DNA of 64,000 bases. It comes from Paracoccaceae bacterium. GTDB lineage: Bacteria; Pseudomonadota; Alphaproteobacteria; Rhodobacterales; Rhodobacteraceae. Of this stretch, positions 3,416-39,556 are shown piece by piece (the first letter of the stretch is position 1; each line of letters starts with the position of its first letter). The position numbers and the translations under genes are program-made. The notes under the pieces are model-generated. The model did no database searches and had not been told where the DNA came from. It saw only the letters and a program-made list of their open reading frames with translations. The DNA is taken from the NCBI GenBank assembly GCA_017854585.1, contig JAFMHK010000007.1, forward strand, positions 1 through 64,000, given 5' to 3'.

Positions 3416-8033
<4,618 letters not shown>

Positions 8034-8050
8034 TTAATAAATCCCTCTTT

Positions 8051-8102
8051 GTTCGCAAATGTTCTCATAAAGTTCTGGACAATACTTGGTTAATATGAGA
8101 AC
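8051..8102 (+). promoter_or_regulatory. Putative LexA (SOS) box with three GTTC half-sites and a 9-base inverted repeat
   Basis: GTTC occurs at 8051, 8061 and 8072. The second and third are spaced as GTTC-N7-GTTC (8061-8075), the exact LexA consensus known for Rhodobacter and other alphaproteobacteria. A perfect inverted repeat, GTTCTCATA at 8061-8069 and TATGAGAAC at 8094-8102, overlaps it. A TAATAT at 8091-8096 could be a -10 element. The lexA gene in this window has an equivalent GTTC array before it. Confidence 0.65.
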
Positions 8103-8134
8103 AAAGGGACAACACCAGCAACGGAGATGCCCCG

Positions 8135-8257
8135 ATGACCCGTCAAATCACCACCATCCTCAGCAAGTCGCGCGATACATTGCTGGCTGATCTGGCGGGT
8201 GTATTTGCCCTTGCGGCGATGACCGTCGGGTTTCTGCATTTGCCCGGTCTGATCTGA
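8135..8257 (+). CDS. Small single-pass membrane peptide (40 aa), putatively SOS-controlled
   Basis: ATG is preceded by GGAG with 8 bases of spacing. The product has a basic/polar N-terminus with Arg, Lys and Asp (MTRQITTILSKSRDTLLADL), then about 18 hydrophobic residues rich in Ala, Val and Phe, ending Leu-Pro-Gly-Leu-Ile. This fits one inner-membrane helix. No family is certain; I recall similar short unannotated frames in roseobacters. A LexA-type box lies 60 bases upstream and a strong terminator downstream, so it looks like a separate transcription unit after recG. In size, topology and control it resembles Caulobacter SidA, a 29-residue SOS-induced division inhibitor, but no sequence identity is claimed. 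Confidence 0.6.
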   Translation: MTRQITTILSKSRDTLLADLAGVFALAAMTVGFLHLPGLI

Positions 8258-8390
8258 GTTACTGCCTGCGGTCCTGCTTGGGTCACTCGGCGCGGCATTG
8301 TCCCCAATGCGTTTGCGCCGATTACTGCCTCAAGGGTTGAGATACTGCCCCGTATCATCGCCCGCCCAAGCCCTGAAAGACACGCATACT

Positions 8391-8429
8391 CCGCCGCCAT
8401 CCGTCCCCGGATGCGCGGCGGTTTTTTTT
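8391..8429 (+). terminator. Rho-independent terminator
   Basis: CCGCCG and CATCCG pair with CGGATG and CGGCGG (one small bulge, loop TCCC), followed directly by eight T. It closes the transcription unit of the 40-residue peptide and possibly recG. It also lies beyond the end of the convergent SufU-like gene. Confidence 0.85.
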
Positions 8430-8479
8430 GAAACAAGGGGGCCTGAAATCGGCCACAGGTCTTGGGACGGTGTCGCGCG

Positions 8480-8932
8480 TCAGGCGCAGGCGGATTGTTC
8501 CGCTTCGCCCATGGCTTGGGCAGTCGCCTCGAGCGACAGCAAGATCGAGGCGTGGCGATTGCGATATTCGCGTGCAGGCTCCAACACGTCAAAACCCGTG
8601 AATGGGGCGTCGGGGGGCGGCGCGCCATCCTTGAGCATGGCGCGCAGTTGGTCACGCGCGGTTTCCACCTCGGCACGTGTGCGTCCGATGATGTTCTGCC
8701 CCATCAATGCGGCACTGGCCTGACCAAGCGCACAGGCCTTCACATCTTGCGCAAAGCGGGTGATGCGGCCATCGGCCATGTCCAGATCGACCGTCACGTT
8801 GGACCCACACAACGGCGCACGTTTCTTGACACTGGCCTGCGGGCTGTCCAGTCGGCCCCGATGGGGCATGTCGGTGGTCAGCGCCAGAATGCGCTGTGAA
8901 TAAAGCTTGATCAGGTCGGTTTCGGCGGTCAT
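8480..8932 (-). CDS. SufU/IscU-like iron-sulfur scaffold protein, degenerate ligands
   Basis: A 150-residue protein of the NifU N-terminal fold. Two of the usual ligand positions are seen: Cys42 in LCGSNV and Cys67 in KACALGQAS. The Asp that normally follows the first Cys-Gly is Ser44. The third ligand, normally Cys in an Arg-x-x-Cys context, appears as His127 (YRNRHASILL). One more cysteine is at 149. It may therefore be a modified scaffold or a sulfur-transfer protein rather than a classic cluster carrier. An AAAGG ribosome site precedes the ATG. It is divergent from hisI and alone on its strand. No suf or isc partner is in the window. Confidence 0.8.
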   Translation of the reverse strand: MTAETDLIKLYSQRILALTTDMPHRGRLDSPQASVKKRAPLCGSNVTVDLDMADGRITRFAQDVKACALGQASAALMGQNIIGRTRAEVETARDQLRAMLKDGAPPPDAPFTGFDVLEPAREYRNRHASILLSLEATAQAMGEAEQSACA

Positions 8933-38813: not shown

Positions 38814-39497
38814 TCAATAGGTTCGGATCAACCCGACAAGACGGCCTTGGACCTTCACCTGATCATCGCGCAACATGCGCGTTTCATAGGCTGGGTTGGC
38901 CGCTTCAAGTGCGATCATGTTGCCCTTTTGGCGGAACCGTTTCAGCGTCGCCTCCTGATCTTCGACCAGTGCGACGACGATATCGCCATTCTTGGCTGTC
39001 GAGCCCTCCTCGATCACCACGATGTCGCCGTCGTTGATGCCGGCGTCGATCATGGAATCACCCTTTACCTCCAAGGCATAGTGGTTGCGCCCGGTGCTGA
39101 TCATCTGCTGCGGCACGGCGACATGGGCCGCAACCTCGGAAATCGCCTCAATCGGGGTACCGGCGGCGATGCGGCCCATGACAGGCAGTTCCATTGCGGC
39201 AAGGGCCGAAACGGGCATCGCTCCGCGTGGTGGATCGGTCCGGTCGCCTTCGATGACGCGGGGGCGGAATCCGCTCTCCATGCCCTCGGGCATCTTCACG
39301 ATCTCGATCGCGCGGGCGCGGTGGGCCAAGCGTCGGATAAACCCGCGTTCCTCTAGCGCTGTGATCAGGCGATGAATCCCGGATTTGGAGCGCAAATCCA
39401 GCGCGTCCTTCATTTCGTCAAAGCTTGGAGGTACACCGTCGCGTTGCACCCGCTTGTGAATGAATTGCAGAAGATCGCGCTGTTTGTTGGTCAGCAT
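38814..39497 (-). CDS. lexA: LexA repressor
   Basis: SOS master repressor with RecA-stimulated self-cleavage. 227 residues. N-terminal helix-turn-helix ('[20 protein letters not shown]'), Ala112-Gly113 cleavage site, catalytic Ser148 ([11 protein letters not shown]) and Lys186 (ATLKRF). The start [10 protein letters not shown] has GGAG 6 bases upstream; the frame runs 11 codons further up into the operator. Three GTTC half-sites just upstream indicate autorepression. It follows the trp-moa cluster on the same strand but has its own promoter region. Confidence 0.97.
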
Positions 39498-39530
39498 TCC
39501 TGTCTCCGTTTGTGTGACTTTTCGGGCCAT

Positions 39531-39556
39531 GTTCGGGTAACGTTCTACCCCTGTTC
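39531..39556 (-). promoter_or_regulatory. Double LexA box of lexA
   Basis: GTTC occurs at 39531, 39542 and 39553, giving two overlapping GTTC-N7-GTTC sites with an 11-base period. This matches the alphaproteobacterial LexA consensus. The array sits 33-60 bases before the lexA start, between it and the end of moeA. Confidence 0.88.

What the first reader, a model, noticed from the sequence alone, without database searches (positions are those of the whole stretch)
8051..8257. 40-residue membrane peptide behind a LexA-type box: possible SOS-induced division inhibitor
A GTTC-N7-GTTC site (8061-8075), the alphaproteobacterial LexA consensus, plus a third GTTC at 8051 and a perfect 9-base dyad, lies just upstream of a short frame with a good ribosome site and its own terminator. 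The product is a single hydrophobic helix with a short polar N-terminus. Caulobacter SidA is also a very short, LexA-controlled inner-membrane peptide that blocks division. I infer a functional analogue; no sequence match to SidA is claimed. lexA is in the same window with the same type of GTTC array, so the operator assignment has an internal control.
Basis: partly seen in the sequence, partly recalled or inferred. Interest (0 to 1): 0.72.

Follow-up and report, generated by a model that had tools for sequence, protein, structure and literature searches.

The report
SOS-controlled membrane peptide with structured RNA
Behind the DNA-repair gene recG, most sampled bacteria of the Rhodobacter/Roseobacter group carry a tiny gene that looks switched on by DNA damage; its transcript encodes a 40-residue membrane peptide and ends in a conserved folded RNA not found in the RNA-family library, and what either part does is still to be tested.

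Summary
GTTC-N7-GTTC alone is not unusual in this genome (122 sites against 149 for the reversed pattern); conservation decides. The 38-42 aa single-helix ORF was found in 256 of 295 genomes of the window's family, one match each, and in 143 of 149 of an order-wide sample. Of 97 loci read (91 distinct), 96 have GTTC-N7-GTTC upstream. recA of ten such genomes carries GAAC-N7-GAAC. Codons show purifying selection (pN/pS 0.26). LexA control and translation are thus well supported in silico. Three copies away from recG keep operator and ORF. A SidA-like division checkpoint is the likeliest role of the peptide, but inferred, not shown; SulA was found in 0 of 26 genomes.

The parts
5937..8033 (+). 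recG, the upstream neighbour on the same strand (698 aa)
   Evidence: NF008164 RecG, 1085.9 bits. recG lies within 900 nt upstream in 88 of 91 distinct loci and 119 of 119 pattern-selected loci.
8051..8075 (+). Operator A: GTTC-N6-GTTC-N7-GTTC, putative LexA array
   Evidence: GTTC-N7-GTTC in 96 of 97 loci, GTTC-N6-GTTC in 88 of 97; column profile.
8076..8081 (+). TGGACA here, TTTACA in most relatives: possible -35 element abutting operator A (inference; no -10 recognised)
   Evidence: column profile +15 to +20; the promoter scan found nothing.
8060..8103 (.). 10-base perfect dyad TGTTCTCATA (8060-8069) / TATGAGAACA (8094-8103)
   Evidence: In relatives the left arm is often GTTCTTA while the right arm mostly stays ATGAGAAC, so the extended dyad is probably two copies of one half-site consensus.
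8099..8113 (-). Operator B: inverted box GAAC-N7-CAAC (degenerate second LexA-type box)
   Evidence: GAAC at exactly +38 in 85 of 90 loci with a box; GAAC-N7-nAAC in 90 of 90, GAAC-N7-GAAC in only 3 of 90. recA of 10 of 10 genomes has GAAC-N7-GAAC.
8123..8126 (+). Shine-Dalgarno-like GGAG, 8 nt before ATG
   Evidence: GGAG, GAGG or AGGA in 84 of 91 homologues.
8135..8257 (+). ORF of 40 aa; conserved single-helix membrane microprotein family (D19, G22, L34 invariant; T15, L26, L30, L36, P37 nearly so in 54 rows)
   Evidence: pN/pS 0.26; hydropathy above 1.6 in 90 of 91; AlphaFold2 one helix, residues 2-39, mean pLDDT 82.
8262..8391 (+). Conserved structured RNA in the 3' UTR: CUGCCUG single strand, long P1, hairpins P2-P4 with C/U-rich loops
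   Evidence: R1 match 24.0 bits, E 0.0037, window locus not in that model; R2 match 50.3 bits, window locus in the training set; fold of 8258-8432 z -4.7; covariation. A whole-genome search with R1 did not return this locus.
8391..8429 (+). Rho-independent terminator (stem 8391-8421, T run 8422-8429)
   Evidence: hairpin in the predicted fold; not listed by the simple scan.
38814..39530 (-). lexA, the presumed repressor
   Evidence: TIGR00498 lexA, 194.5 bits.
39531..39556 (.). lexA operator array GTTC-N7-GTTC-N7-GTTC (internal control)

Best explanation
The locus is a compact SOS transcription unit of Rhodobacteraceae in the broad sense. (1) LexA binds two facing boxes, GTTC(-N6-GTTC)-N7-GTTC and GAAC-N7-nAAC, that probably bracket the promoter, and keeps it shut (inferred from operator conservation; binding not shown). 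(2) When RecA on single-stranded DNA triggers LexA cleavage, one short mRNA of about 330 nt is made (size inferred from operator and terminator). (3) It is translated into a 38-42 aa peptide that inserts as one inner-membrane helix, probably N-terminus in (translation supported by codon selection; topology inferred). (4) The rest of the mRNA is a folded RNA of about 130 nt whose stems covary and whose loops (CUGUCCC, CUGCCU, UGCCUC) and 5' CUGCCUG are conserved, so the loops most likely bind an RNA or a protein (structure well supported, function inferred). (5) The most likely role of the peptide is a DNA-damage checkpoint: it acts on a membrane protein, most likely of the divisome as SidA does in Caulobacter, while the RNA domain tunes the stability or output of the transcript or acts as a regulatory RNA. 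Steps 1-4 are covered by the confidence given here; the division target in step 5 I put at about 0.4.
For: ORF in 256 of 295 genomes, one match each and in 143 of 149; four of those six misses keep the operator and a diverged hydrophobic ORF behind recG. Operator in 96 of 97 loci with nearly fixed five-half-site spacing. recA of 10 of 10 genomes has GAAC-N7-GAAC; a degenerate form of the peptide-operator pattern also hit the recA promoter of one genome. pN/pS 0.26 and both boxes in 35 of 35 species. RNA: 71 of 91 loci at E up to 1 (56 at E below 0.01) with a model built on 10 of them; two-sided changes 311 against 72 in shuffles; alignment-free permutation test z -19.3, 0 of 2000, and own strands pair better than composition-matched shuffles (-25.2 against -18.7). 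Three relocated copies keep operator and ORF; the RNA model matches all three, one only at E 0.099. SulA 0 of 26, control E. coli found.
Against: No expression, binding or phenotype data. No -10 element was recognised and the promoter scan found none. The GTTC-N7-GTTC word is not enriched in the genome, and 19 further sites with AT-rich spacers gave no clear set of SOS genes (not checked by family search). The second box is degenerate (GAAC-N7-GAAC in only 3 of 90). RNA alignments A4 and A6 were fitted to the structure; 3 of the 31 rows of A6 are identical or nearly so to training rows. The number of pairs with two-sided changes, 27 of 28, is also high in shuffles (20.3 and 17.9). The first RNA model missed 20 of 91 loci and 31 of 80 named ones at E up to 0.1, and whole-genome searches with it did not return the window locus or the two non-seed genomes tried. 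Nothing ties the peptide to the divisome.
Confidence: 0.78

Rival explanations
1. SOS-induced membrane toxin of the TisB/DinQ kind: the peptide depolarises the inner membrane and slows the cell, and an RNA (the 3' fold itself or an unseen antisense RNA) restrains its translation.
For: TisB (29 aa) and DinQ (27 aa) are LexA-controlled inner-membrane peptides, and the tisB mRNA has an inhibitory structure (PMC8309996, passages). Here too a hydrophobic peptide goes with a structured mRNA.
Against: One match per genome in 256 of 295 genomes, unlike what I recall of patchy toxin loci. The ribosome-site region pairs no better with its own 3' UTR than with those of other species (own -23.96, swapped -24.61), and scanning the 5' leader gave no convincing signal. 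The hydrophobic segment has a mean net charge of only -0.5. Antisense transcripts were not looked for.
Confidence: 0.25
2. The RNA is the main product: an SOS-controlled regulatory RNA whose CUGCCU/CUGUCCC loops bind mRNAs or an RNA-binding protein, the peptide being a secondary or separate function of a dual-function RNA.
For: Stems covary while loops are conserved; CUGCCU occurs 259 times in 164 UTRs against 24 in shuffles; in Paracoccus amoyensis (L183) and genus g24 the peptide is shortened or diverged while the operator is kept.
Against: The peptide is under purifying selection and widespread; no target was identified; 20 of 91 loci, e.g. L127, have the ORF but no recognised RNA.
Confidence: 0.2
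3. The peptide is an SOS membrane protein unrelated to division, for example modulating a transporter, a protease or competence/gene-transfer-agent functions.
For: In-silico LexA sites in Dinoroseobacter shibae tie LexA to gene transfer agents, pili and flagella (PMC6473078, passages).
Against: No positive evidence for any such target was found; the neighbourhood in the window is DNA repair (ligA, recG), which is a weak argument since the unit can sit elsewhere.
Confidence: 0.3
4. The 3' RNA is the precursor of the known Rhodobacter sphaeroides sRNA UdsC (3' UTR of RSP_7527).
For: RSP_7527 is also a small protein on a 300-nt mRNA whose 3' UTR is processed by RNase E to about 70 nt (PMC6238624, passages; PMC8625941, passages).
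Against: The RSP_7527-udsC promoter is reported as RpoHII-dependent and the mRNA as heat-induced (PMC9779115 and PMC6238624, passages); recG does not occur in the main text of these papers, nor LexA in PMC9779115. The sequence of RSP_7527 was not available to me, so identity is unresolved.
Confidence: 0.1

Closest known systems
Caulobacter SidA (SOS division inhibitor)
   Same: Small, LexA-controlled, membrane-anchored protein; alphaproteobacterial GTTC-N7-GTTC box (PMC12700426, PMC6851548, passages).
TisB and DinQ (E. coli SOS type I toxins)
   Same: LexA-controlled inner-membrane peptides of 29 and 27 aa; the tisB mRNA is structured (PMC8309996, passages).
   Different: No antitoxin RNA known here; one match per genome across a whole family; hydrophobic segment nearly uncharged.
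SosA / YneA (Gram-positive SOS division inhibitors)
   Same: Single membrane span, SOS-induced (PMC6851548, passages).
   Different: Those have an outer C-terminal part that SosA needs for activity; this peptide ends right after the helix.
UdsC / RSP_7527 and Pos19 (R. sphaeroides small coding RNAs)
   Same: Small protein plus RNA on one short transcript (PMC9779115, passages; Pos19 from the start of its abstract in the listing).
   Different: Those are assigned to RpoHII and RpoE, not LexA; identity of UdsC with this RNA is unresolved.

Membership tests
LexA regulon (SOS gene) | LexA box in the promoter, conserved among relatives | tested here: met
   96 of 97 loci; 35 of 35 species of four genera; boxes at lexA in this genome and at recA in 10 of 10 genomes.
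LexA regulon (SOS gene) | LexA binding, and induction by DNA damage that needs RecA | not testable with these tools
   needs ChIP/EMSA and mitomycin C transcript data.
SidA | very short single-span membrane peptide under LexA | tested here: met
   in silico only.
SidA | sequence homology to SidA | not tested
   no SidA sequence was available; in a class-wide sample of 385 genomes the family model matched 9, five of the window's family and four weakly inside long frames.
SidA | blocks division through late divisome proteins (FtsW/FtsN) | not testable with these tools
   experiment needed.
Type I toxin-antitoxin (TisB/DinQ) | antitoxin RNA that pairs with the toxin mRNA near the ribosome site | tested here: inconclusive
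   own 3' UTR pairs no better than swapped ones and the leader scan was weak; antisense or trans RNAs were not looked for.
Type I toxin-antitoxin (TisB/DinQ) | toxic to the membrane when overproduced | not testable with these tools
   experiment needed.
SulA | match to the SulA family | tested here: not met
   0 of 26 genomes (16 of the window's family, including this one, and 10 of the class); control E. coli found. The peptide itself has no Pfam match.
Any Rfam 15 RNA family | covariance-model match | tested here: not met
   0 matches at E up to 5 in window 7900-8600; in 10 loci at E up to 1 only four sub-threshold Ysr141 matches, all outside the element.
UdsC (RSP_7527 3' UTR sRNA) | same gene as the one behind recG | not tested
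   no R. sphaeroides sequence to compare; the reported promoter is RpoHII-dependent.
Pfam / NCBIfam protein families | family match of the peptide | tested here: not met
   0 families for 54 members at E up to 0.05 in Pfam; at E up to 1, 1 of 3 proteins had one ComX match far below its cut-off (E 0.14); 0 of 3 in NCBIfam at E up to 1.

The most novel reading that the evidence does not exclude
A dual-function SOS transcript: one LexA-controlled mRNA carries both a membrane checkpoint peptide and a loop-displaying regulatory RNA of a new family (repeated CUGCCU/CUGUCCC loops that capture a protein or mRNAs), so that DNA damage acts at the membrane and after transcription from a single promoter in a whole bacterial family.
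Probability: 0.4. Interest if true: 0.85.

Novelty: new variant of a known kind. Interest (0 to 1): 0.72.

Why it matters
Rhodobacteraceae in the broad sense (Roseobacter, Ruegeria, Rhodobacter, Paracoccus relatives) are abundant marine and model bacteria. SulA was not found in the 26 genomes searched, and my paper searches listed no described SOS division checkpoint for them (an open-access library only). A microprotein with one match per genome, tied to its operator, is a direct candidate and can be tested with one deletion and one overexpression. The attached RNA would be a new conserved RNA family; an SOS-controlled dual-function RNA was not listed for this group by the searches.

Tried and rejected
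Chance box: considered, because GTTC-N7-GTTC is not enriched in the genome; rejected on conservation. Chance ORF: rejected on conservation and codon selection. Expression only as a tail of recG: unlikely, because three relocated copies keep the operator and ORF. Pairing of the ribosome-site region with the 3' RNA: no support. Pairing of the 5' leader with the 3' RNA: an association of GGTCAAC leaders with TGACCTGCC in the UTR (11 of 20 against 1 of 31 GGCAAC leaders) is probably shared ancestry, since the energy scan was weak at best (t -1.7) and of the wrong sign further down the leader. A plain MAFFT alignment of 65 UTRs gave little beyond the terminator, so a structure drawn by hand on 10 seeds was used. 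Other copies of the RNA: in the own genome only one weak match elsewhere (E 0.59), the window locus itself not being returned; one per genome in 8 of 10 genomes, all 8 being seed genomes and the two non-seed ones giving none; in the window one further chance-level match (E 0.36). Homologues elsewhere in the class: only four weak matches inside long frames. Other SOS genes from 19 AT-rich-spacer sites, chosen by eye from the roughly 100 of 122 listed: little gained. Rfam, Pfam and NCBIfam: no family. Papers: searches listed no description of this gene or RNA; supplements could not be read and most subscription papers are not held. Dropped rows: 6 of the 97 loci repeat another; 39 of 164 UTRs were left out of the pairing test because the 5' motif or terminator was not recognised; 12 of 149 species pairs of unequal length were left out of pN/pS; 5 of 91 unnamed and 31 of 117 named UTRs had no recognised end.

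Full report
What is there. Window 8051-8429 holds, in order, three GTTC half-sites (8051, 8061, 8072), an inverted GAAC-N7-CAAC (8099-8113), GGAG, a 40-codon ORF (8135-8257), and a 3' part ending in a terminator (8391-8429). It follows recG, whose frame overlaps that of ligA upstream, and faces a SufU-like gene whose score is below its family cut-off. lexA lies in the same window with its own GTTC array.

On names. Most genomes here are unnamed; 'family' and 'order' are those of the search tool.

Is it more than chance? The box alone is not: the genome has 122 GTTC-N7-GTTC sites against 149 for the reversed control pattern. Conservation is decisive. A profile of 11 homologues found the ORF in 256 of 295 family genomes, one match each. 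A 54-row profile found it in 143 of 149 genomes of the order sample, in three of these with a second weak match. In a class-wide sample of 385 genomes it matched 9: five of the family and four weakly inside long frames. I read 97 loci (91 distinct); 96 have GTTC-N7-GTTC within 220 nt upstream of the start, 88 GTTC-N6-GTTC, other spacings 0-5. Anchored on the box, the 90 distinct loci that have it share the layout GTTC(-10) GTTC(0) GTTC(+11) TTTACA - about 12 variable bases - AWATGAGAACAAA (GAAC at exactly +38 in 85 of 90) and nAAC 11 bases further (90 of 90).

Other routes to the same unit. These genomes overlap in part with the unnamed set (shared contig lengths), so the two sets are not independent. 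Of 23 genomes in which a profile had failed (the six misses and 17 further of the 39 misses), eight matched a looser operator pattern with up to two mismatches: seven behind recG with a diverged hydrophobic ORF of 31-46 aa, and one at the promoter of recA; fifteen gave nothing. In 10 of 10 genomes recA has GAAC-N7-GAAC about 70-96 nt before its start, depending on the start codon chosen. In three of 91 loci recG is not within 900 nt upstream, but operator and ORF are kept; the RNA model matches two of these well and one weakly (E 0.099). So this is an autonomous unit with a LexA-type operator.

Is the ORF translated? In four genera with 35 species, pN/pS is 0.23-0.36, pooled 0.26 over 137 of 149 pairs; all 35 have both boxes. 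With starts chosen near the model's first position and ATG preferred, all 91 distinct homologues have an ATG start; 84 have a ribosome-site-like motif, 90 a 19-residue segment with mean hydropathy above 1.6, and the part before it is on average slightly positive (+0.7), which suggests N-in topology. AlphaFold2 gives one helix, residues 2-39, mean pLDDT 82, pTM 0.42. D19, G22 and L34 are invariant and T15, L26, L30, L36, P37 nearly so in 54 rows. No Pfam or NCBIfam family was matched beyond one sub-threshold ComX match.

The 3' RNA. The 3' UTRs share CUGCCUG after the stop, hairpins with C/U-rich loops, a long-range stem and a terminator. CUGCCU occurs 259 times in 164 UTRs against 24 in mononucleotide shuffles. 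The window stretch 8258-8432 folds at z -4.7. From 10 seeds with a hand-drawn 28-pair structure, a covariance model matched 71 of 91 loci at E up to 1 (56 at E below 0.01), that is 61 of 81 non-seeds; by inspection of the table every match lies 3' of the ORF on its strand. The window locus scored 24.0 bits, E 0.0037. The model matched 49 of 80 named loci at E up to 0.1, all 49 at 196-310 nt after the operator start on the same strand; 4 of these 49 are identical to rows of the first set. A second model, trained on the 71, matched 31 of the 39 remaining named loci, three of them identical or nearly so to training rows. On the 71-row alignment 27 of 28 pairs have two-sided changes (20.3 in shuffles), 311 cells change on both sides (72 in shuffles) and 90.8% of cells pair (71.9% in shuffles; 33-50% when slid); on the 31-row one 27 of 28 (17.9), 161 (39) and 90.5% (68.5%). 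Both alignments were fitted to the structure. A test without any alignment agrees: the pairing energy of each 5' P1 strand with its own 3' strand is -25.3 kcal/mol on average, with strands of other loci -19.6; 0 of 2000 permutations reach it (n = 125 of 164 UTRs), and with own strands shuffled, which keeps composition, it is -18.7. The loops CUGUCCC, CUGCCU and UGCCUC are conserved where stems vary, although stem columns carry on average more information (0.89 bits) than unpaired ones (0.65), because much of the unpaired part is variable. Rfam 15 has no match.

How it most likely works. DNA damage removes LexA from two facing boxes around the promoter; a short mRNA is made; the peptide enters the inner membrane; the RNA domain remains as a folded 3' end or a processed RNA. 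I judge LexA control and translation nearly certain from conservation, a functional RNA fold very likely, a SidA-like division checkpoint possible (about 0.4), with a membrane toxin or another membrane target as rivals. SulA was found in 0 of 26 genomes examined, 16 of them of the family. Tests for pairing between the ribosome site or leader and the RNA were negative or weak.

Literature. LexA box and SidA facts were read as passages (PMC12700426; PMC6851548; PMC13384398); TisB/DinQ as passages (PMC8309996). In-silico LexA sites in Dinoroseobacter shibae (PMC6473078, passages): recG does not occur in its main text. UdsC/RSP_7527 of R. sphaeroides (PMC9779115, outline, part of the methods and passages; PMC8625941 and PMC6238624, passages) is a similar arrangement with a reported RpoHII promoter; whether it is this locus could not be settled. 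sRNA surveys in Ruegeria pomeroyi (PMC4809877) and Paracoccus (PMC5107571) do not mention recG in the main text. The searches listed no description of this unit; only titles and starts of abstracts were seen there.

Noticed in passing
TGAGAAC), so recA and the peptide gene may share one operator architecture.
   Followed up: partly
L273 1201-1215: GTTCTTTTTTTGTTC 13 bp upstream of a 360-codon ORF that looks like a PA0069-type radical SAM protein (name recalled, not searched): a further candidate LexA target in this genome.
   Followed up: no
L099, L102, L104: Three genomes carry the operator-peptide unit away from recG; upstream divergent frames in L102 and L104 look like purL and purC (recalled from sequence, not searched).
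   Followed up: partly
L337, L338, L339 (genus g24) and L183 (Paracoccus amoyensis): The operator is kept but the peptide is shortened or diverged (about 31-46 aa), which may show the minimal core: D/G near the membrane entry, one helix, LP near the end.
   Followed up: partly
window 3452-8033: The frames of ligA and recG overlap (3452-5944 and 5937-8033), so the unit follows a DNA-repair gene pair.
   Followed up: no
L037 18-272 (-), L008 2756-2987 (+), L013 69-313 (-), L023 176-215 (-): Sub-threshold Rfam Ysr141 matches (18-29 bits, gathering score 196) in the flanks of four of ten loci, outside the described element; probably coding-sequence resemblance.
   Followed up: no
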